Shown here: one piece after another, positions 1,830 through 42,025 of the stretch
Layout of the letters: every line of letters begins with the position of its first letter
Position numbering within the stretch: position 1 is the stretch's first letter
Virus record (IMG/VR): IMGVR_UViG_3300022924_000008
Coordinates: 1-42,025 of that record
Reading direction: 5' to 3' (one strand)
DNA from: a virus
Length of the DNA: 42,025 nucleotides
The notes under the pieces: model-generated
What the model saw: the letters and a program-made list of their open reading frames with translations, nothing else
Told to the model about the DNA's origin: nothing
Database searches by the model: none
Made by a program: the position numbers and the translations under genes

Positions 1830-2144
1830 ATGGAAATCAAAGGAACAGTAAAAGCATTAATTGCGCCGGTACAGGTCAGCGAAAAATTAAAGAAAGCGCA
1901 GTTGATAGTTGACTATGCGGAAAACCCTCAATATAATCAAGTGATATCATTTGAAGCTGTAAATGACAAGTGCGCCATTTTGGATAACCTAAACATTGGT
2001 GATGAGGTTGAGGTTTCGTTTAACCTTAATGGCCGCGAATGGGTTGACAAAACCGGCGTTACTAAGTATTTCAACACTTTACAGGTTTGGAAAGTCAGCG
2101 TTTTATCATCTACTGCGGATAACGGATCTGACCTTAGTTTTTAA
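1830..2144 (+). CDS. Single-stranded DNA-binding protein, DUF3127-like
   Basis: The 104-residue protein matches the DUF3127 family found in Bacteroidota and their phages. It begins MEIKGTVK, has NPQYNQVISFE in the centre and a G-DEVEVSFNLNGREW segment followed by KYFNTLQVW. It is predicted to form an OB fold and coat single-stranded DNA. The C-terminus ends in an acidic stretch closing with an aromatic residue (GSDLSF), as in SSB tails that dock partner proteins. It lies directly behind the exonuclease. Confidence 0.85.
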   Translation: MEIKGTVKALIAPVQVSEKLKKAQLIVDYAENPQYNQVISFEAVNDKCAILDNLNIGDEVEVSFNLNGREWVDKTGVTKYFNTLQVWKVSVLSSTADNGSDLSF

Positions 2145-2627: not shown

Positions 2628-2821
2628 AAATAAACGGAAAAGAACTAAGTTCACATGATGGTGGTAATACTATATATTACGACCATATACTTATAAAAAG
2701 TTTCTCCAATCCTAAATTAAATGTTTATTCTACGTGGGATGAATGGGTTAAATATTTAACAGATAACCCTGATTTTTGCGGTTGTAAATATCATGAAATT
2801 TTGAAAGGGCATTGTAAATGA
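2624..2821 (+). CDS. 65-residue hypothetical protein
   Basis: The soluble product has three cysteines near the C-terminus (CGCKYHEILKGHC), which could bind a metal. No family is recognised. It overlaps both neighbours by 4 nt and lies directly before the DNA methylase gene. Confidence 0.55.
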   Translation: MKINGKELSSHDGGNTIYYDHILIKSFSNPKLNVYSTWDEWVKYLTDNPDFCGCKYHEILKGHCK

Positions 2822-3525
2822 AATACATGGGTTCAAAAGATAAATATGCGAAATATTTACTGCCGTATATATTGCAAGAAAGAACAAAAAATCAATGGTA
2901 TGTAGAGCCTTTTGCTGGTGGTTGCAACATGATTGACAAAGTTGATGGAAATAGAATAGCAAATGATGCAAATCATTATGTAATAGCTTTGTTTAATCAT
3001 TTGCAATGGGGAGGTATTCTACCAGAATATACAACTAAAGAGCAATATAAGCATGTACTTGATAATAAAGACATGTACCCATCTTGGATGGTGGGATATG
3101 TTGGTATTTGCTGTTCGTATTCGGGTAAGTGGTTTGGTGGATTTGCTGGTAAAACAGTAACAAGGAACGGAATTAGAAACTATCAAGAAGAAGCAAATAG
3201 AAACCTCTTAAAGCAGGCGATAAAAATAAAAGACATAATATTTAAATCTCAAGAATATTTTGATTTAAAAATACCAGAGAATAGCGTCATTTACTGCGAT
3301 CCTCCATATGAGGGGACAACAAAATATTTTACATCATTTAATCATGGCTTTTTTTGGGATTGGTGCAGGCAGCAAAATAAAAATGGCCATAAAGTATTTG
3401 TAAGTGAATACAATGCCCCGCCTGATTTTAAATTACTTTTATCCATTGAAGCAAAAAGCAGTCTTTCAGCAAATGGAGTTATTGGAGGTAGTAAAAAAAG
3501 CATTGAAAAATTATTTACCATATAA
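2818..3525 (+). CDS. Dam-like DNA N6-adenine methyltransferase (D12 class)
   Basis: The 235-residue protein transfers a methyl group from S-adenosylmethionine to adenine N6. The N-terminal KYMGSKDKYAKYLLPYI is typical of the D12/Dam class. The cofactor motif EPFAGG is at residues 30-35 and the catalytic motif DPPY at 161-164. Length fits the family. No restriction endonuclease is adjacent, so it is an orphan phage methylase, most likely protecting phage DNA from host restriction or marking it. The target sequence cannot be read from the protein. It overlaps the upstream gene by 4 nt. Confidence 0.9.
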   Translation: MKYMGSKDKYAKYLLPYILQERTKNQWYVEPFAGGCNMIDKVDGNRIANDANHYVIALFNHLQWGGILPEYTTKEQYKHVLDNKDMYPSWMVGYVGICCSYSGKWFGGFAGKTVTRNGIRNYQEEANRNLLKQAIKIKDIIFKSQEYFDLKIPENSVIYCDPPYEGTTKYFTSFNHGFFWDWCRQQNKNGHKVFVSEYNAPPDFKLLLSIEAKSSLSANGVIGGSKKSIEKLFTI

Positions 3526-4007: not shown

Positions 4008-4286
4008 ATGGATATCACATGTCAAAGATGCGGATTAGTCAACGACTATACCGTTAAGCAAGCAGGGCCGCACCAATCGGCCTACTGCAATGGATGTAAC
4101 AATTACATCAAACACCTCCCACAAAATAACCCTGTCGATATTATGCCTTTTGGCAAGTTCAAAGGCAGGGAATTAAAATCATTAAAAACTACAGAGGAAT
4201 TAAAATACCTTGAATGGTTTGTTCAGATGCCGGATCTAAAGCCGCGAATTAAAGAAGCTGTAACAAACTATCTCAAAACGGTATGA
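4008..4286 (+). CDS. Zinc-ribbon protein with DUF3820-like C-terminus
   Basis: The 92-residue product has an N-terminal zinc ribbon (C5, C8, C27, C30) and then IMPFGKFKGRELKSL at about residues 45-59, leading to LEWFV. This PFG-K-x-KG-x-x-L...YL-x-W layout is the DUF3820 / ExoX C-terminal-like domain common in phage replication neighbourhoods. The gene overlaps the primase-helicase gene by 4 nt, so an accessory replication role is likely. The biochemical function is not known. Confidence 0.7.
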   Translation: MDITCQRCGLVNDYTVKQAGPHQSAYCNGCNNYIKHLPQNNPVDIMPFGKFKGRELKSLKTTEELKYLEWFVQMPDLKPRIKEAVTNYLKTV

Positions 4287-6535
4287 AGCCGGAAATAGGC
4301 AAATGTAAGCTGCTATTAGATAGCGGGCTTAGTCTTATTACCGTAAAATCCGATAAGATACCAAATATACCTTGGAAAAAATACCAGTCTGAAATTATAT
4401 CAAAGTCAGATTTTGAAGCTGCATATAACCTAAGTAATACAGTTGGGGTTGGTATTTGTACTGGTTTTAATGGGCTGGAAGTAATAGATATTGACCTTAA
4501 AGTATTTTCCACACTTAAAGAACAGCAGGATTTTTGGACTGAGTATATACAGTTACTAAAAGACCATATACTGGACTTTGAAACAAAGTTTGTTATTTAC
4601 AGAACTATTAACGGTGGCTACCATATTCTTTACAGATGTGAGAAAATAGGAGGAAATCAAAAGATAGCAAAAGTAAAAGGACATACCGAGGCAGTAATTG
4701 AAACCCGTGGCGTTGGTGGTTATGTATTTGTTTACGAAAATAAGATATCAAAAAAGTCTTATACAGAAATACAGGAAATTTCAGAACTTGATAGAGAAGC
4801 TTTATTTGGAATAAGCAGGTATTATAATTACGTTGAGGAAGTTGATAAGATAATACCAGATAAGATAGAAAAGGAATATGTTAGCGAAGTTAGCCCATGG
4901 CAGGATTACAATCAGAAAACGTCTATTTTGGACCTGCTTGCTGATGACTTTGAAATTGTAAAGAACATATCCGATAAGTACATTATAAGGAGAAATGGCG
5001 CAACTTCTCCACATAGCGGTTATGTTTATAAAAATAGTGGTTGCATGTACCTTTTTAGTACTGGCACCATATTCCCAAACGAAAAACTAATTAGCCCATT
5101 TTCGGCCTATACAATCAAGCATCATTCTGGTAACTATAGCGAAGCCGCAAAAGAACTTTATAAAAAAGGGTTCGGTAGCAGGATAATTAAGCCGGTGGCT
5201 AAACTGCAAATTGAACCGCAGGTAAATTATAAGGATTTGGAATTCCCTTTAGAGGTATTCCCTAAAGAAATCCAAAACTATATGATACAATGCCGTGACA
5301 CTTTGGATAGTTCAATTGATTATATGGGTTGCTCTTACCTTTGGTTAGTATCTGTAATTATAGGCAATAGCGTAAAGATACAGGTAAAGCCTGGATGGGT
5401 AGAGCCTGCAACCATGTGGATGACTATTGTGGGGAAAGCTGGTATAGGTAAAACTCCATCTATTAGCAACGTTGTTTTTCCCATTCAAAAAGCTAATAAC
5501 AGGGAAATAAAGAAATTCGTTAAGGAGTACGATAAGTATAACGAATTTATGGAACTTGATAAAAAAGACAGGCAAAATACAGAGCAAATAAAACGGCCCC
5601 GAAAAACACAATTCATAGCCGATGATATCACCCTAGAGGCATTGGTTGATTTACATGAAGAGAATAAGAATGCAGTAGGCGTATTTAAAGATGAGTTAGC
5701 CGGATGGATTAAGGACATGAATAAGTACCGCGCCGGATCTGATTTAGAATTTTGGCTTAGTACATGGTCTGCAAAGTCTGTTTCTTTAAACCGTAAAACA
5801 GCTAAATCAGCATTCGTGCCTCACCCGTTAATCCCTGTTTTGGGCGGTATTCAACCGGGCATATTTGATAGCTTCTATAACGATGAGAATAAGGATAACG
5901 GGTTTATTGACCGTATGCTATTGTGTTACCCTGATTTGATGGTTGAGGAATATAACGATAATGAATTATCTTATGATACCATTAACTGGTATAACGATTA
6001 CATAATTGCTTTTTACAGCGATGTTAAATCCAAGGTAGTTCAGTTAGACGTAGACGATGAAATTAAGCCTATTATAGCTATAATGGATGCCGAGGCAAAG
6101 GTTGAGTGGAAACGGATATTTAATAAGATTACAGCGCAGCAAAACGATGATGACGAAAACGAATATATGAAATCAATGCTACCTAAGCAAAAAAGCTACA
6201 TACCCCGTTTTGCCTTGCTATTCAACTGCATGCATGTATTTGATAAATCTGCTGATATATCTAATTTTAAGGTAATTAACAAGGCAGCTATACTAGCTGC
6301 GGAAAAGCTATCAGATTACTTTATTAGGATGGCTAAGAAGATTAAAATCACCTCTAATGAAGTATCAGATATTAAGAACATGATGCGTATTACAGCTAGC
6401 CTGCCAAAGAATAAACAATTTATGGCTATGTATGAACTCAACCCAAATTTAAACAGATCAGAGGTTGCCGAAAAGCTAGGTGTATCTCGTAAAACTGTAC
6501 AATCATGGGTAAAGGAGCTTAAAGGCGAGGTGTAA
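4283..6535 (+). CDS. Primase-polymerase / DUF3987 helicase fusion
   Basis: This 750-residue protein is the likely replicative primase-helicase. Residues 1-190 read as a prim-pol domain: GLEVIDIDLK supplies the acidic pair D69/D71 and NGGYHILY has H114, the usual prim-pol histidine motif. Residues about 320-690 fit a DUF3987-type ATPase with Walker A GKAGIGKT at 384-391 and a Walker B-like VFKDELAGWI. The last 32 residues form a helix-turn-helix (NRSEVAEKLGVSRKTVQSWVKEL). The gene ends inside the first copy of the GTGTAACC repeats that fill the 300 bp downstream, so this C-terminal domain could be the one that binds them; that link is inference. Confidence 0.85.
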   Translation: MKPEIGKCKLLLDSGLSLITVKSDKIPNIPWKKYQSEIISKSDFEAAYNLSNTVGVGICTGFNGLEVIDIDLKVFSTLKEQQDFWTEYIQLLKDHILDFETKFVIYRTINGGYHILYRCEKIGGNQKIAKVKGHTEAVIETRGVGGYVFVYENKISKKSYTEIQEISELDREALFGISRYYNYVEEVDKIIPDKIEKEYVSEVSPWQDYNQKTSILDLLADDFEIVKNISDKYIIRRNGATSPHSGYVYKNSGCMYLFSTGTIFPNEKLISPFSAYTIKHHSGNYSEAAKELYKKGFGSRIIKPVAKLQIEPQVNYKDLEFPLEVFPKEIQNYMIQCRDTLDSSIDYMGCSYLWLVSVIIGNSVKIQVKPGWVEPATMWMTIVGKAGIGKTPSISNVVFPIQKANNREIKKFVKEYDKYNEFMELDKKDRQNTEQIKRPRKTQFIADDITLEALVDLHEENKNAVGVFKDELAGWIKDMNKYRAGSDLEFWLSTWSAKSVSLNRKTAKSAFVPHPLIPVLGGIQPGIFDSFYNDENKDNGFIDRMLLCYPDLMVEEYNDNELSYDTINWYNDYIIAFYSDVKSKVVQLDVDDEIKPIIAIMDAEAKVEWKRIFNKITAQQNDDDENEYMKSMLPKQKSYIPRFALLFNCMHVFDKSADISNFKVINKAAILAAEKLSDYFIRMAKKIKITSNEVSDIKNMMRITASLPKNKQFMAMYELNPNLNRSEVAEKLGVSRKTVQSWVKELKGEV

Positions 6536-6809
6536 CCCAGTGTAACCTAAGGTTACACCAAATGTTACACTAAAAACGCTTGTAACTAATTGAAATATAG
6601 GTATTTAAATAAAATTGTAACCTAATGTTACTGTAACCTTTGGTAAAAAAGAAGAAATTTTAAAATAAAAAAACAGAAATTATTTTAGGTGTAACCTGTA
6701 ACATTGGGTTACACCTATTAAAAAACGGCCTTTTAATATACTACAGGGCACATTTTAACTAAAAACATGTGTAACATTAGGGTTACACTAGGTTACAGTT
6801 AGGTTACAC
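6530..6809. repeat. GTGTAACC repeat array (iteron-like)
   Basis: Fifteen copies of the core GTAAC/GTTAC lie within 280 bp, eight on the plus strand (near 6532, 6542, 6582, 6617, 6633, 6691, 6698, 6771) and seven inverted (near 6552, 6564, 6627, 6708, 6782, 6792, 6803). About one would be expected by chance. Most extend to GTGTAACC. Perfect inverted pairs occur at 6540-6547/6551-6558 (3-nt spacer) and 6688-6696/6707-6715 (10-nt spacer holding one more core). The last three copies are 10-11 bp apart, one helical turn. Confidence 0.92.
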
Positions 6810-6842
6810 TTTATTCACTTTTACTAACAACTTTGAAATTAT
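6536..6842. other. Candidate replication origin (non-coding)
   Basis: This gene-free stretch between the primase-helicase gene and the next gene holds the GTGTAACC array and an A/T-rich core (6640-6687) between repeat clusters that could act as a melting region. Clustered direct and inverted repeats flanking an AT-rich tract beside a helicase-primase gene is the classic layout of an iteron origin. No open frame of note is present. An operator cluster for a regulator is the main alternative. Confidence 0.6.
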
Positions 6843-29574: not shown

Positions 29575-32058
29575 ATGCAAAAACAACTACGCATATACCT
29601 AACCTTCATAGCGGTAACCCTATCCGCAATGGCTTACGGGCAAACAGCGAGGCAGGACACAATAGCCGATAGCACTACGGTTGTACCTACGTATCAGATT
29701 AAGATAAAGACCACCAACTTAGGGCGGATGCCGTATTTATCTATTCCGTCATTGGCCAAGACAGATCTGTTGCTAACTAGCAAAATGGCTAAGAAGATTT
29801 ACGCCCCTTTGTCAAGTACTGGTAATTATGTGAAGTTGTTCCCGCTAAGTTCTACGCTATACCAAACAGGCCAAGTAAACATCACAGACGGCGGCGCAAA
29901 GTCTGAAATGACAGGGTATAGCTATCACGCTACTATACCGGGCGGTACTAATGCGACTTATGCGGCGAATGTTGCTCAAATAAACCAAAGCACCTATCAA
30001 TCACAAATTCAAGCGCAAGGTTTTAATTTTACCAATGGTACGGCAAGTAATACCATGCAGTACAACACCACGGGCGACACAGCTTTAAACGTTGGCGGTG
30101 TTTATGACTTTAGCGGTGCCGTACTTCATAACGTACCCGCAGCATTACAGGATAACGATCCTGTTATATTGAGTCAATTAACGGCAGGCTATGTCCCCTC
30201 CACCCGCACCATATCAACAGGTTACGGATTATCTGGCGGCGGTGACTTATCGGCAAATAGGACGCTATTGATTGATACGTCTTTAATAGCTAAAATTATT
30301 TCCAATAAGGATATTGTAGCTAATTCCTACACCGCACCAAACATATACGGCGGGACGGCAGCGGCGAGCAAACTAACTTACACGGCAACAACAGGCACAG
30401 GTACAAGTGGCGGCGTTGCACATCAATTTAACGGCGGCACTAACGGCGGCACAACAATAGGCAGGTTTTACAACGATGGTAAATTTGCGTTCGGGTCTGG
30501 TAGCTCTACACAGTCATTAGGCGAATTTAACTATACTACTACACTAACTACCAGCCAGCGCACAACGCGACACTTATTGAATCTTAACTTAGCGGCTAAC
30601 GGGGCTAGCGTATCCGAGGCTATTTTCGCAAATGCTAAATATACAGCCACATCCAGCTTTTATAATACGGGGGCTTTTAGTGGCGTATACGCGCTAGCTG
30701 AAACAGTAGGCGATGGCAGGTATGCACAGATACAGGGTGTTCTAGGCGAGGCAAGATCAGGCGGCAACCTTACAACCGTTAACTCGGATGTTCAATCGCT
30801 ATACGGTGGCCGGTTCTACTCTCAAAATTTAGGGTTGGGTTATACGGGGCATTTAGTCGGGGTTAAGATCGGCCAAAACGTTAACAATGGGGTATCAGAC
30901 GTTGACTTTGGTTTATATATTATGCAGCGCGCCAATACGGGGACGGGCACAACAACTCGCACGGCTGCGGTACAATTAGAGGGTATTCTCGACGGTATAG
31001 ATTGGGGTAATAACGACGGGTCTGGCGGTAATAAATATATTAAGGGGTTGTCACTTCGCAGCTTAGAAATCAACAGCAGTGATAGTTTGAAAATTACAGG
31101 GCCTTTATATGCAACTGCTAATAGCACATCAGCTGGATTTCGCGTTAATAATACAGGGGCTGGAAACTTGGCACTATTTCAAGCTGTTAACGTCCCAGTT
31201 GCTGGTATAACGCCATCTGGGAGGTTTACAGGTTCTGGTATGTCAAGTCTTACAAGCATTGCAAAGGGGACTATAACGTTTGGGACAACTATAACGGCGG
31301 CAAGGGATACGGCAGACACATCTCCATCTTTTGTTGTGAATAACGTGAATGCAAGTAATACGGGATCTATAATTCAATTACAATCGGGTGGTAGTTCGGT
31401 CGCATCCGTAACTAAAAGCGGTATAGGTGTTTTTGCAAAATTACAGGTTGCTAGTACCGATACATATTCAACGGGTGGTTTTTTGCCTTTGGTATTTAAT
31501 ACAACAACTTCCAGATTTGAAAAGGGGGCAGTTACGGGTACGGGTAGTTTTGTGCTGGCAACTGGGCCGACATTAACCAACATCAGACCGGCTACAACAT
31601 TTCAGAGCGCAACAGGAGGGACAACCGATAGTGTTGGGTTCTGGAATGCGCAACGGCACGTTAGTAAGGCTTTGGTTGCAGGGGCGGGGGTTAATATTAC
31701 ACAGACCGCTAGTAGTGTAACGATAGCCACTACAAGCGGTACCCCTGTAGAAATATCAGGAACATCCCAAACAGCGTCTGCTAATACGGCATACATCCCG
31801 CATAATGCATCATTAACTACTATTACACTACCTACTACAACCGTAGTCGGTACTTTATTCCAAGTGATAGGAGAGGGTAGCGGCGGCTGGCGTATACAAC
31901 TCGCATCCGGGCAAGTAATTAAAGGCGTAGGATCATTTAGCACTACGTCGGGCGGTACGGTATCAAGCACCGACCGCTATTGCACTATAACTATACGTTT
32001 GGTTGCCGCTAATACATTTGTCGTAACTACCTCACAAGGCACATTAACACCTGCATAA
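29575..32058 (+). CDS. Tail-fibre-like protein with N-terminal signal peptide
   Basis: The 827-residue product starts with a clear Sec-type signal (MQKQLRIYLTFIAVTLSAMA, then YGQ), with cleavage likely near residues 20-23. The rest is a long fibre-like beta protein rich in T, S, G and N. The segment TRTISTGYGLSGGGDLSANR near residue 205 is a typical phage fibre motif, and the C-terminal 130 residues form a compact beta domain. A secretion signal is odd for a virion protein assembled in the cytoplasm. It may be an exported phage factor, or a fibre that keeps the signal uncleaved as a membrane-targeting segment. Confidence 0.65.
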   Translation: MQKQLRIYLTFIAVTLSAMAYGQTARQDTIADSTTVVPTYQIKIKTTNLGRMPYLSIPSLAKTDLLLTSKMAKKIYAPLSSTGNYVKLFPLSSTLYQTGQVNITDGGAKSEMTGYSYHATIPGGTNATYAANVAQINQSTYQSQIQAQGFNFTNGTASNTMQYNTTGDTALNVGGVYDFSGAVLHNVPAALQDNDPVILSQLTAGYVPSTRTISTGYGLSGGGDLSANRTLLIDTSLIAKIISNKDIVANSYTAPNIYGGTAAASKLTYTATTGTGTSGGVAHQFNGGTNGGTTIGRFYNDGKFAFGSGSSTQSLGEFNYTTTLTTSQRTTRHLLNLNLAANGASVSEAIFANAKYTATSSFYNTGAFSGVYALAETVGDGRYAQIQGVLGEARSGGNLTTVNSDVQSLYGGRFYSQNLGLGYTGHLVGVKIGQNVNNGVSDVDFGLYIMQRANTGTGTTTRTAAVQLEGILDGIDWGNNDGSGGNKYIKGLSLRSLEINSSDSLKITGPLYATANSTSAGFRVNNTGAGNLALFQAVNVPVAGITPSGRFTGSGMSSLTSIAKGTITFGTTITAARDTADTSPSFVVNNVNASNTGSIIQLQSGGSSVASVTKSGIGVFAKLQVASTDTYSTGGFLPLVFNTTTSRFEKGAVTGTGSFVLATGPTLTNIRPATTFQSATGGTTDSVGFWNAQRHVSKALVAGAGVNITQTASSVTIATTSGTPVEISGTSQTASANTAYIPHNASLTTITLPTTTVVGTLFQVIGEGSGGWRIQLASGQVIKGVGSFSTTSGGTVSSTDRYCTITIRLVAANTFVVTTSQGTLTPA

Positions 32059-36014: not shown

Positions 36015-36680
36015 CTAATCAGTAACTTTGTTGTAAGTAATTCCTCTCGTATAATTATAAACGTAAGACCCCCACTGATCTGCCATTGCATTTGCTATGC
36101 CTTCAAATGTTTTTGAAGATTGCTTCTGACTTATTGACTTATACATAAACTTTTGCCCTCTTTTTGCACCGCCTGTATTAGAAGGTAAAAAAGGAACAAA
36201 TTCCTTAAGAATGTTTGTGTGAATAAGATGTGGTAAATTTGTCCACAAATAGGTTTTTTTGCTAAATGGATCACCAAATTGATAGGGTTGTATTATCTGG
36301 TCTGGTTTGTCAAGTCCAACTATTTTTAATGGCTGTGGGTTTTCTAATGCAATAAATGGGATTGGTGCTTCTTTTAATTTATCAAAAAAATATTTTGCTT
36401 CATACGCTTTTTTTAATCTTTCTTGATTTACAACGCCCCCTGCATGCATCCACCTTGCCCCGGCTTTACTCATATAAGTACACGGAGGGTGTGCTATCAT
36501 TAAATCCCAGTGCTGTTCATTATGCACCGTATAAGCAACCTTAATAGCATCCCCTCGTATATGCCATTCTGGATGTCCGCCGCTGCATTCTTGCATGTCG
36601 CATGAGTATGCTTCGTAACCTAATTTTCTAAACGCTTTTGTAACTGTTTGCGATTCCTCGCATGCGATAAGTACTTTCAT
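36015..36680 (-). CDS. Cytosine-5 methyltransferase-like protein
   Basis: The 221-residue product resembles the short phage C5-methylase-like family: N-terminal KVLIACEESQTVTKAFRKLG (cofactor loop), DLMIAHPPCTYMS with the PPC catalytic cysteine (C67), and FIALENPQPLK with the ENP motif (113-115). A target-recognition region as large as in bacterial Dcm enzymes is missing, so the exact activity could be modified. The start at 36680 is chosen because a TATGTTTG box lies at 36716-36723; the upstream ATG at 36722 would overlap that box. Confidence 0.75.
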   Translation of the reverse strand: MKVLIACEESQTVTKAFRKLGYEAYSCDMQECSGGHPEWHIRGDAIKVAYTVHNEQHWDLMIAHPPCTYMSKAGARWMHAGGVVNQERLKKAYEAKYFFDKLKEAPIPFIALENPQPLKIVGLDKPDQIIQPYQFGDPFSKKTYLWTNLPHLIHTNILKEFVPFLPSNTGGAKRGQKFMYKSISQKQSSKTFEGIANAMADQWGSYVYNYTRGITYNKVTD

Positions 36681-36715
36681 TTTGTGGTAATTTATGTTCG
36701 GCACTATTGCCAATC

Positions 36716-36723
36716 CAAACATA
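36716..36723 (-). promoter_or_regulatory. Candidate leftward promoter box
   Basis: On the minus strand TATGTTTG matches TAnnTTTG and lies 35 nt before ATG 36680 of the methylase-like gene. No good -33 TTG is visible. Confidence 0.45.
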
Positions 36724-41498: not shown

Positions 41499-41693
41499 TT
41501 AAATAGTATCGTAAAACTCATTAATTATTAAACTTTCGTTTTTTAATTCATCGTGTGCGCATAGTTTTACAGTTTTACAACCGTCATATTGAGTTATATC
41601 AATTACAGTAGAAAGGTTAACGTTTGATTTACGAGCTAATTTTGCTTTTTTAATTATTGCCTCTAATTGCTCGATTGATGTGGTAAGTTTCAT
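41499..41693 (-). CDS. 64-residue hypothetical protein
   Basis: A soluble product with an N-terminal helix (TTSIEQLEAIIKKAKLARKS) and C-terminal strands. It is the first gene of the second leftward block and faces the divergent control region. No family is recognised. Confidence 0.55.
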   Translation of the reverse strand: MKLTTSIEQLEAIIKKAKLARKSNVNLSTVIDITQYDGCKTVKLCAHDELKNESLIINEFYDTI

Positions 41694-41851
41694 AGCTGCT
41701 AAGTTTTTGTGTGTTGTTTAATAACACGAAGTACGGAATTAGTTTTCACATTTGCAAGACTATTTAAATTTAATTTACATTTATTTTTTATTTAAAATAA
41801 ATTTGCATCCTATCTAAACATTCCCGATACTTGTAGAAATAAAAAAAGGAA
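41694..41851. promoter_or_regulatory. Divergent early control region
   Basis: This 158-bp, very A/T-rich gap separates the leftward block from the rightward early block. Plus-strand TAAATTTG at 41798-41805 matches the -7 consensus and lies 46 nt before ATG 41852. Minus-strand TAGTCTTG near 41756-41763 is one base from the consensus. No RNA gene or large repeat was seen. Confidence 0.45.
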
Positions 41852-42025
41852 ATGAAAACTTACAGATATAGATTAAATGATGTTATTGAAAATATGTACG
41901 CCGAGTATATGAGCTTTAAGCACGACAAATTGTCTTTTGATGATTGGTGTAACTCTACGCAAGGCAAAGTACACTTAGCTGAACTAATATTAAACGATAT
42001 CGATGAAATGGGCGGAGTAACATCG
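41852..42025 (+). CDS. Small protein, 5' part of the join-spanning gene
   Basis: The first 58 codons of the 64-residue protein that continues at base 128 of the window in the circular molecule (its last codons end at 148). The product begins MKTYRYRLNDVIENMYAEYM and is soluble, with no recognised family. A purine-rich AAAAAAAGGAA precedes the ATG. It is the first rightward early gene. Confidence 0.75.
   Translation, partial: MKTYRYRLNDVIENMYAEYMSFKHDKLSFDDWCNSTQGKVHLAELILNDIDEMGGVTS
41899..42025. repeat. Terminal direct repeat, right copy (circular join)
   Basis: Identical to bases 1-127. Joining the two copies closes the genome to 41,898 bp and restores one intact small gene. Confidence 0.95.

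What the first reader, a model, noticed from the sequence alone, without database searches (positions are those of the whole stretch)
6530..6842. Dense GTGTAACC repeat array: a likely iteron origin next to a primase-helicase with its own HTH
Fifteen GTAAC/GTTAC cores in 280 bp, eight direct and seven inverted, include two perfect inverted pairs and a helically phased trio, around an A/T-rich tract. The array begins inside the stop codon of a prim-pol/DUF3987 protein that ends in a helix-turn-helix. Seen: repeats and HTH. Known: iteron origins have this layout. Inferred: the protein binds the repeats, giving an initiator and helicase in one chain.
Basis: partly seen in the sequence, partly recalled or inferred. 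Interest (0 to 1): 0.78.

Follow-up and report, generated by a model that had tools for sequence, protein, structure and literature searches.

The report
Phage replication origin read by its primase
In this virus of Bacteroidota bacteria, and in over a hundred relatives, a cluster of short DNA repeats around an A/T-rich stretch is very probably where genome copying starts; the repeat sequence changes in step with a few amino acids at the tail of the virus's own primase-helicase, which implies that one protein both finds the start site and begins opening and priming it.

Summary
In detail: 15 GTAAC/GTTAC cores (8 and 7) lie in 280 bp, and 300 dinucleotide shuffles of the window never exceed 7. 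I gathered 117 distinct relatives (<90% identical) of the 750-aa Prim-Pol/DUF3987/HTH protein. In 112, one 6-mer occurs at least 7 times in <=320 bp beside the gene, either at the stop codon (58) or 0.24-1.3 kb upstream (54). An A/T tract of about 6% GC sits at the array's centre. The repeat differs between phages (GTGTAACC, GTGTAACAT, GTGTGAAA, GTTTAAACC, GTGGAAAG and others). The protein columns that best track it, out of about 610, are residues 736, 737, 738 and 741 of the C-terminal recognition helix. Rules written down beforehand held in 61 new phages (Arg737 with G instead of A: 14 of 16 against 3 of 45; 14 of 15 independent lineage pairs, none opposite). So the helicase's own HTH very probably reads the repeats, and the layout matches the iteron origins of PICI satellites and phage P4. 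That replication starts here is inferred; nothing here measures it. I rate it a new, widespread variant of a known kind.

The parts
4283..6535 (+). Primase-helicase-initiator, 750 aa: Prim-Pol + DUF3987 P-loop ATPase + C-terminal HTH
   Evidence: Pfam Prim-Pol 1.1e-5, DUF3987 2e-50; D69, D71, H114, Walker-A G384/G389/K390 and D470/E471 invariant in 47 relatives; fold matches pRN1 ORF904 prim-pol (E 3.8e-7) and, weakly, MCM (1e-3)
4322..4783 (+). Prim-Pol domain (residues 14-167)
5312..6343 (+). DUF3987 helicase-like ATPase domain (residues 344-687)
6407..6523 (+). C-terminal HTH (residues 709-747)
   Evidence: AlphaFold helices 709-719, 725-732, 736-747; HTH profiles
6488..6523 (+). Recognition helix (residues 736-747); residues 736, 737, 738, 741 and 744 track the repeat sequence
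6530..6810 (.). Whole repeat array (proposed origin of replication)
6530..6638 (.). Left repeat set, 8 cores; the first repeat GTGTAACC contains the stop codon of the gene
6648..6687 (.). Central A/T-rich tract (10% GC), proposed DNA-unwinding element
   Evidence: central position conserved in 111 arrays
6689..6810 (.). Right repeat set, 7 cores, including the 10/11-bp phased trio 6782/6792/6803
1830..2144 (+). Single-strand DNA-binding protein of the same early module (accessory, inferred)
   Evidence: phrog_4932, 2.3e-24

Best explanation
The array at 6530-6810 is the phage's replication origin, and the protein encoded just before it is its initiator. The C-terminal helix-turn-helix of the primase-helicase binds the roughly 9-bp repeats (GTGTAACCT in this phage) on both sides of the central A/T tract. 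This loads ring-forming DUF3987 helicase subunits on either side, the A/T tract melts, and the Prim-Pol domain of the same chain lays the first primers; no DNA polymerase gene was recognised among the ORFs scanned, so the host polymerase probably takes over. Shown: the array, its linkage to the gene across the family, its symmetric layout around an A/T tract, and the dependence of the repeat sequence on recognition-helix residues. Inferred: physical binding, melting, loading, and that replication starts here.
For: (1) Linkage: 112 of 117 distinct relatives have at least 7 copies of a 6-mer in <=320 bp beside the gene; at least 10 copies in 87 of 117, against 0 of 344 1.5-kb windows elsewhere in the same loci. 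(2) Layout: the lowest-GC 40 bp (mean 6.5% GC, random windows 18%) sits at the array's centre (quartiles 0.43-0.50 of its length); same-orientation repeats peak at 10-11 bp spacing; repeats lie on both sides in 47 of 48 scorable loci. (3) Covariation, training set: the top four of 605 variable columns are 741, 737, 738 and 744, all on the recognition helix; helix identity predicts repeat similarity (partial r 0.46, 0 of 2000 permutations) while the rest of the protein does not (0.09). (4) Out of sample: rules recorded held in 61 new phages: 737R with G5 14/16 vs 3/45 (p 3e-9), 741R with ACA 10/14 vs 1/47 (p 1e-7), 741K with AAC 17/20 vs 4/41, 736 Leu/Val/Ile with TTT 7/10 vs 0/51. Five residues predict the repeat better than the nearest whole protein (49 of 61, p 1e-7), which does no better than random. 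(5) Lineage-corrected pairs: 14 of 15 (737R) and about 12.5 of 15 (741R), none opposite. (6) SaPI Rep, PICI Pri-Rep, SCCmec Cch2 and P4 alpha have the same layout or mode (PMC7581432, PMC6092414, PMC4234260).
Against: No binding or replication-start measurement exists. The array sits upstream in about half the relatives, so a regulatory role there cannot be excluded. Some recognition helices break the rules (SRSQIYNW with GTGTGCA; Lys737 with G in L105 and L003; L119, L342), and the 741N rule held in only 11 of 21 test phages. L005 and L393 show no array, though their upstream flanks are cut off by contig ends.
Confidence: 0.86

Rival explanations
1. The primase-helicase binds the array, but its main role is regulation (autorepression or control of the flanking operon) or partition, not initiation.
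For: Same covariation data; upstream arrays in 54 of 112 relatives could overlap promoters; initiators often autoregulate (own knowledge).
Against: In 58 relatives, the window included, the array starts at the stop codon, where it cannot be the gene's own operator. No promoter excess in the window's array (3 found, 3.3 expected; sigma-70 type only). About 15 sites around a central A/T tract exceed an operator's needs.
Confidence: 0.09
2. The repeats are mainly single-strand template signals for the Prim-Pol domain, as in phage NrS-1, whose primer synthesis depends on an 8-nt template sequence.
For: NrS-1 and pRN1 prim-pols are the closest solved folds; NrS-1 uses an 8-nt recognition sequence present twice per genome (PMC7102993).
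Against: Repeat identity tracks the recognition helix, and identity in the primase domain is a poor predictor (r 0.25 against 0.49). Ten to twenty helically spaced copies in both orientations fit double-strand binding better. Both roles could coexist.
Confidence: 0.04
3. Another phage or host protein (for example the small terminase at a packaging site, or a host regulator) binds the array.
For: The window encodes a small terminase, and some relatives have another HTH-like gene next to the array (L006, by eye).
Against: The best predictors of the repeat are residues of the primase-helicase recognition helix; the array follows this gene to either side. A host factor would not change specificity phage by phage.
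Confidence: 0.02
4. Chance or low-complexity sequence.
For: The region is A/T-rich.
Against: 15 cores against at most 7 in shuffles; conserved in 112 of 117 relatives.
Confidence: 0.005

Closest known systems
PICI / SaPI satellites: Pri-Rep (sometimes fused) with an iteron origin 3' of rep (PMC6092414, PMC7581432)
   Same: Two sets of iterons flank an A/T-rich region right after the initiator-helicase gene; the helicase's C-terminal domain recognises them.
   Different: PICIs are satellites of other hosts; here a full tailed-phage genome of the Bacteroidota group uses Prim-Pol + DUF3987 + tri-helical HTH, and the array lies upstream in half the family. [quoted passage not shown]
Phage P4 alpha protein (PMC4234260 and references in it)
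   Same: Primase, helicase and origin-binding domain in one chain; binds repeats at the origin.
   Different: TOPRIM primase and winged-helix domain; here an AEP-type Prim-Pol, DUF3987 and a three-helix HTH with no wing predicted.
pRN1 ORF904 (PMC4234260)
   Same: Prim-Pol fold (best PDB match), helicase and C-terminal DNA-binding domain; origin just 3' of the gene.
   Different: pRN1's origin is a 100-nt stem-loop without iterons; SF3 helicase.
SCCmec Cch2 helicase (PMC7581432)
   Same: Helicase whose C-terminal domain binds direct repeats downstream of its operon.
   Different: The primase is a separate protein pair (CCPol-MP).
Prim-Pol + DUF3987 + winged-helix fusions of PrimPol-PV1 (PMC5862659)
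   Same: Same class of domain architecture; DUF3987 predicted a helicase, C-terminal domain suggested for origin recognition.
   Different: Prediction only, without an identified origin; the present data supply a candidate origin and its specificity.

Membership tests
Iteron-type origin with self-initiating helicase (PICI/P4-like in mode) | Cluster of short repeats beside the initiator gene | tested here: met
   112 of 117 relatives
Iteron-type origin with self-initiating helicase (PICI/P4-like in mode) | Two repeat sets flanking an A/T-rich tract | tested here: met
Iteron-type origin with self-initiating helicase (PICI/P4-like in mode) | The initiator's own DNA-binding domain recognises the repeats | tested here: met
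   By covariation and prediction only; no binding assay
Iteron-type origin with self-initiating helicase (PICI/P4-like in mode) | Replication starts at the array | not testable with these tools
   Needs infected-cell sequencing or plasmid replication assays
PICI | Satellite gene content lacking a full virion module | tested here: not met
   Window encodes small and large terminase, portal and endolysin: not a PICI
P4 alpha family | TOPRIM primase and winged-helix origin-binding domain | tested here: not met
   AEP Prim-Pol and three-helix HTH
pRN1-type origin | Large stem-loop 3' of the replication gene, no iterons | tested here: not met
   Dispersed repeats of both orientations; no Rfam match above gathering score; the array was not folded as a single strand
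PrimPol-PV1 supergroup | AEP primase of that supergroup fused to a DUF3987-type ATPase and C-terminal DNA-binding domain | tested here: inconclusive
   Domain order met; placement of the primase within the supergroup not tested by phylogeny

The most novel reading that the evidence does not exclude
The family carries a readable protein-DNA code: about five residues of the initiator's recognition helix set the origin repeat (736: G or T at position 3; 737 Arg: G instead of A at position 5; 741: Arg ACA, Lys AAC, Asn AAA), so the specificity of a phage's origin can be read off its primase, and closely related phages keep separate, incompatible origins while the enzyme core stays conserved.
Probability: 0.6. 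Interest if true: 0.75.

Novelty: new variant of a known kind. Interest (0 to 1): 0.64.

Why it matters
Origins are known for few phages, and Prim-Pol/DUF3987 proteins had only a predicted role (PMC5862659). This gives a widespread phage family a predicted origin, an initiator and a testable base-recognition code from natural variation alone. It extends an origin layout described as unique to PICI satellites to full phage genomes, and offers a large natural series for studying how initiator and origin change together without losing function.

Tried and rejected
Cumulative GC skew: follows gene direction, uninformative. DNA-level relatives among named phages: none; protein relatives there are partial and distant. 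Single-protein scan of genome contigs: none; the profile scan found L161 and L162 plus distant hits. Rfam: nothing above gathering score. Promoter scan: no excess; one terminator-like stem on the - strand. No E. coli-type DnaA box near the array and no GATC inside it. A rival array near other low-GC or divergent regions: none. PDB sequence search: one weak unrelated hit. My first regular expression for the residue-741 rule was faulty (it matched TTTTACA) and was corrected; the rule wording itself was fixed beforehand. Several 736 'exceptions' come from a TGG in the flank and agree by eye; true exceptions are L119 and L342. L414's top hit was an unrelated tandem repeat and was left out.

Full report
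Observation. The window is a 42,025-bp virus contig with a 127-bp end repeat, hence a 41,898-bp circle. Its large terminase is closest to Flavobacterium phages (44%), and the genome-contig relatives above 40% identity are Bacteroidota/Saprospirales. Between the stop codon of a 750-aa gene (4283-6535) and the next gene (6843) there are 15 GTAAC/GTTAC cores, 8 and 7, the first one containing the stop codon. The count is far beyond chance: at most 7 in 300 whole-window dinucleotide shuffles and at most 9 in 2000 local shuffles, and no other cluster in the window comes near it. The best-fitting unit is GTGTAACC(T).

Protein. The protein has an N-terminal Prim-Pol domain, a DUF3987 P-loop domain and a C-terminal HTH. 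Catalytic residues of both enzyme domains are invariant in 47 relatives (D69, D71, H114; G384, G389, K390, D470, E471). An AlphaFold model (pLDDT 85.5) gives a three-helix HTH at the very C-terminus with recognition helix 736-747. Its primase domain matches pRN1 ORF904 and NrS-1 prim-pols; the middle resembles MCM-type AAA+ helicases, weakly. The early module also encodes a YqaJ-type exonuclease and an SSB; no DNA polymerase was recognised among the ORFs scanned.

Relatives. Protein searches brought in several hundred viral loci and two MAG loci above 40% identity. Dereplicated at 90% identity, the first set gave 51 proteins including the window's. The array was then searched without reference to the window's repeat, by the densest 6-mer of either strand. 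It was present in 50 of these 51, and in 112 of 117 after adding 66 further representatives. At least 10 copies occur in 87 of 117, against none of 344 1.5-kb windows elsewhere in the same loci. Positions fall in two classes: starting at -76 to +48 of the stop codon (58 cases, commonly -4, that is with GTG-TAA as last codon and stop inside the first repeat) or 242-1283 bp upstream of the start (54 cases). The side changed at least eight times on the tree. Of the five failures, three have 6-copy clusters beside the gene (L376, L394, L424), in L394 and L424 of the unit expected from their helix; L005 and L393 have upstream flanks cut at 1444 and 536 bp.

Layout. In 111 arrays the lowest-GC 40 bp averages 6.5% GC (random windows 18%) and lies at the array's middle (median 0.47 of its length, quartiles 0.43-0.50). 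Same-orientation repeats are spaced mostly 10-11 bp, one helical turn. Among 48 arrays with at least six GTGTAA sites, 47 have sites on both sides of the tract.

Who reads the repeats. The unit differs between phages: GTGTAACC, GTGTAAACC, GTGTAACAT, GTGTGACAT, GTGCGACAT, GTGTAAAG, GTGGAAAG, GTGTGAAA, GTTTAAACC, GTTCAA and more. Repeat similarity was computed strand-symmetrically and compared with identity in each part of the protein. In the 50-member training set the recognition helix explains it (partial r 0.465 given the rest of the protein; 0 of 2000 permutations) and the rest does not (0.088 given the helix). Of 605 variable columns, 741, 737, 738 and 744 rank 1-4 and 736 ranks 6. In the 61-member test set alone, 736 and 741 rank 1 and 2 of 611, with 738 and 737 at 5 and 7.

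Prediction. Rules were written in the notebook before the test loci were analysed. In test phages: Arg737 goes with G instead of A at position 5 in 14 of 16 (other residues 3 of 45); Arg741 with ACA in 10 of 14 (1 of 47); Lys741 with AAC in 17 of 20 (4 of 41); Asn741 with AAA in 11 of 21 (3 of 40); Leu/Val/Ile736 with TTT in 7 of 10 (0 of 51). The nearest training phage by five helix residues predicts the test repeat (mean similarity 0.30); the nearest by the rest of the protein does no better than random (-0.04 against -0.06; 49 of 61 wins, p 1e-7). On a tree built without the HTH, 15 independent pairs that differ in Arg737 show the expected base change in 14 and never the reverse (p 1e-4); Arg741 and Lys741 behave alike. 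The simplest reading is direct readout by the helix of this protein.

Mechanism. Shown: the array, its linkage, its symmetric layout and the base-by-residue dependence. Inferred: binding by the HTH on both sides of the A/T tract, assembly of helicase rings, melting of the tract, priming by the Prim-Pol domain and hand-over to a polymerase, probably the host's. The closest experimental precedents are the SaPI Rep helicase, whose C-terminal domain recognises iterons directly downstream of its gene, and SCCmec Cch2 (PMC7581432); the PICI origins with two iteron sets around an A/T tract (PMC6092414); and P4 alpha (PMC4234260). Prim-Pol/DUF3987/winged-helix proteins had been predicted to act this way (PMC5862659); I found no paper that names their origin (open-licence library only).

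Limits. Representatives at 90% identity are still related; the tree-based pairs and the comparison with all other columns are the controls for that. Palindromic repeats (GTTTAAAC, TGTNACA) leave orientation ambiguous, so the similarity comparisons were made strand-symmetrically. The Asn741 rule is weak and several helices (SRSQIYNW, SKR-, TTQ-) follow patterns I cannot yet state. Nothing here measures binding or replication.

Noticed in passing
window 6530-6536 and the DOWN-type relatives: In many relatives the last codon and stop of the primase gene (GTG TAA) are themselves the first origin repeat, so origin and gene end overlap recurrently.
   Followed up: partly
L006:2900-3040 and its clade: In phages with an upstream array, the preceding gene, which encodes another HTH-like protein, also runs into the first repeats of the array.
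   Followed up: no
window 41693-41852: Extremely A/T-rich gap between divergent gene blocks, with a Bacteroidota-like TAAATTTG promoter element (by eye); no repeat array there.
   Followed up: partly
window 2818-3525 (+) and 36015-36722 (-): Two different DNA methyltransferase genes in one 42-kb phage (D12 class/phrog_56 and phrog_757).
   Followed up: no
window 29575-32058: 827-aa ORF with no PHROG match in the late region.
   Followed up: no
L163 (Planctomycetota MAG): Distant relative (25%) whose C-terminus does not align to the HTH, and with no array found: a single hint that array and HTH come and go together.
   Followed up: no
L359, L397, L414: Long tandem or coding repeats elsewhere in these loci, unrelated to the arrays.
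   Followed up: no
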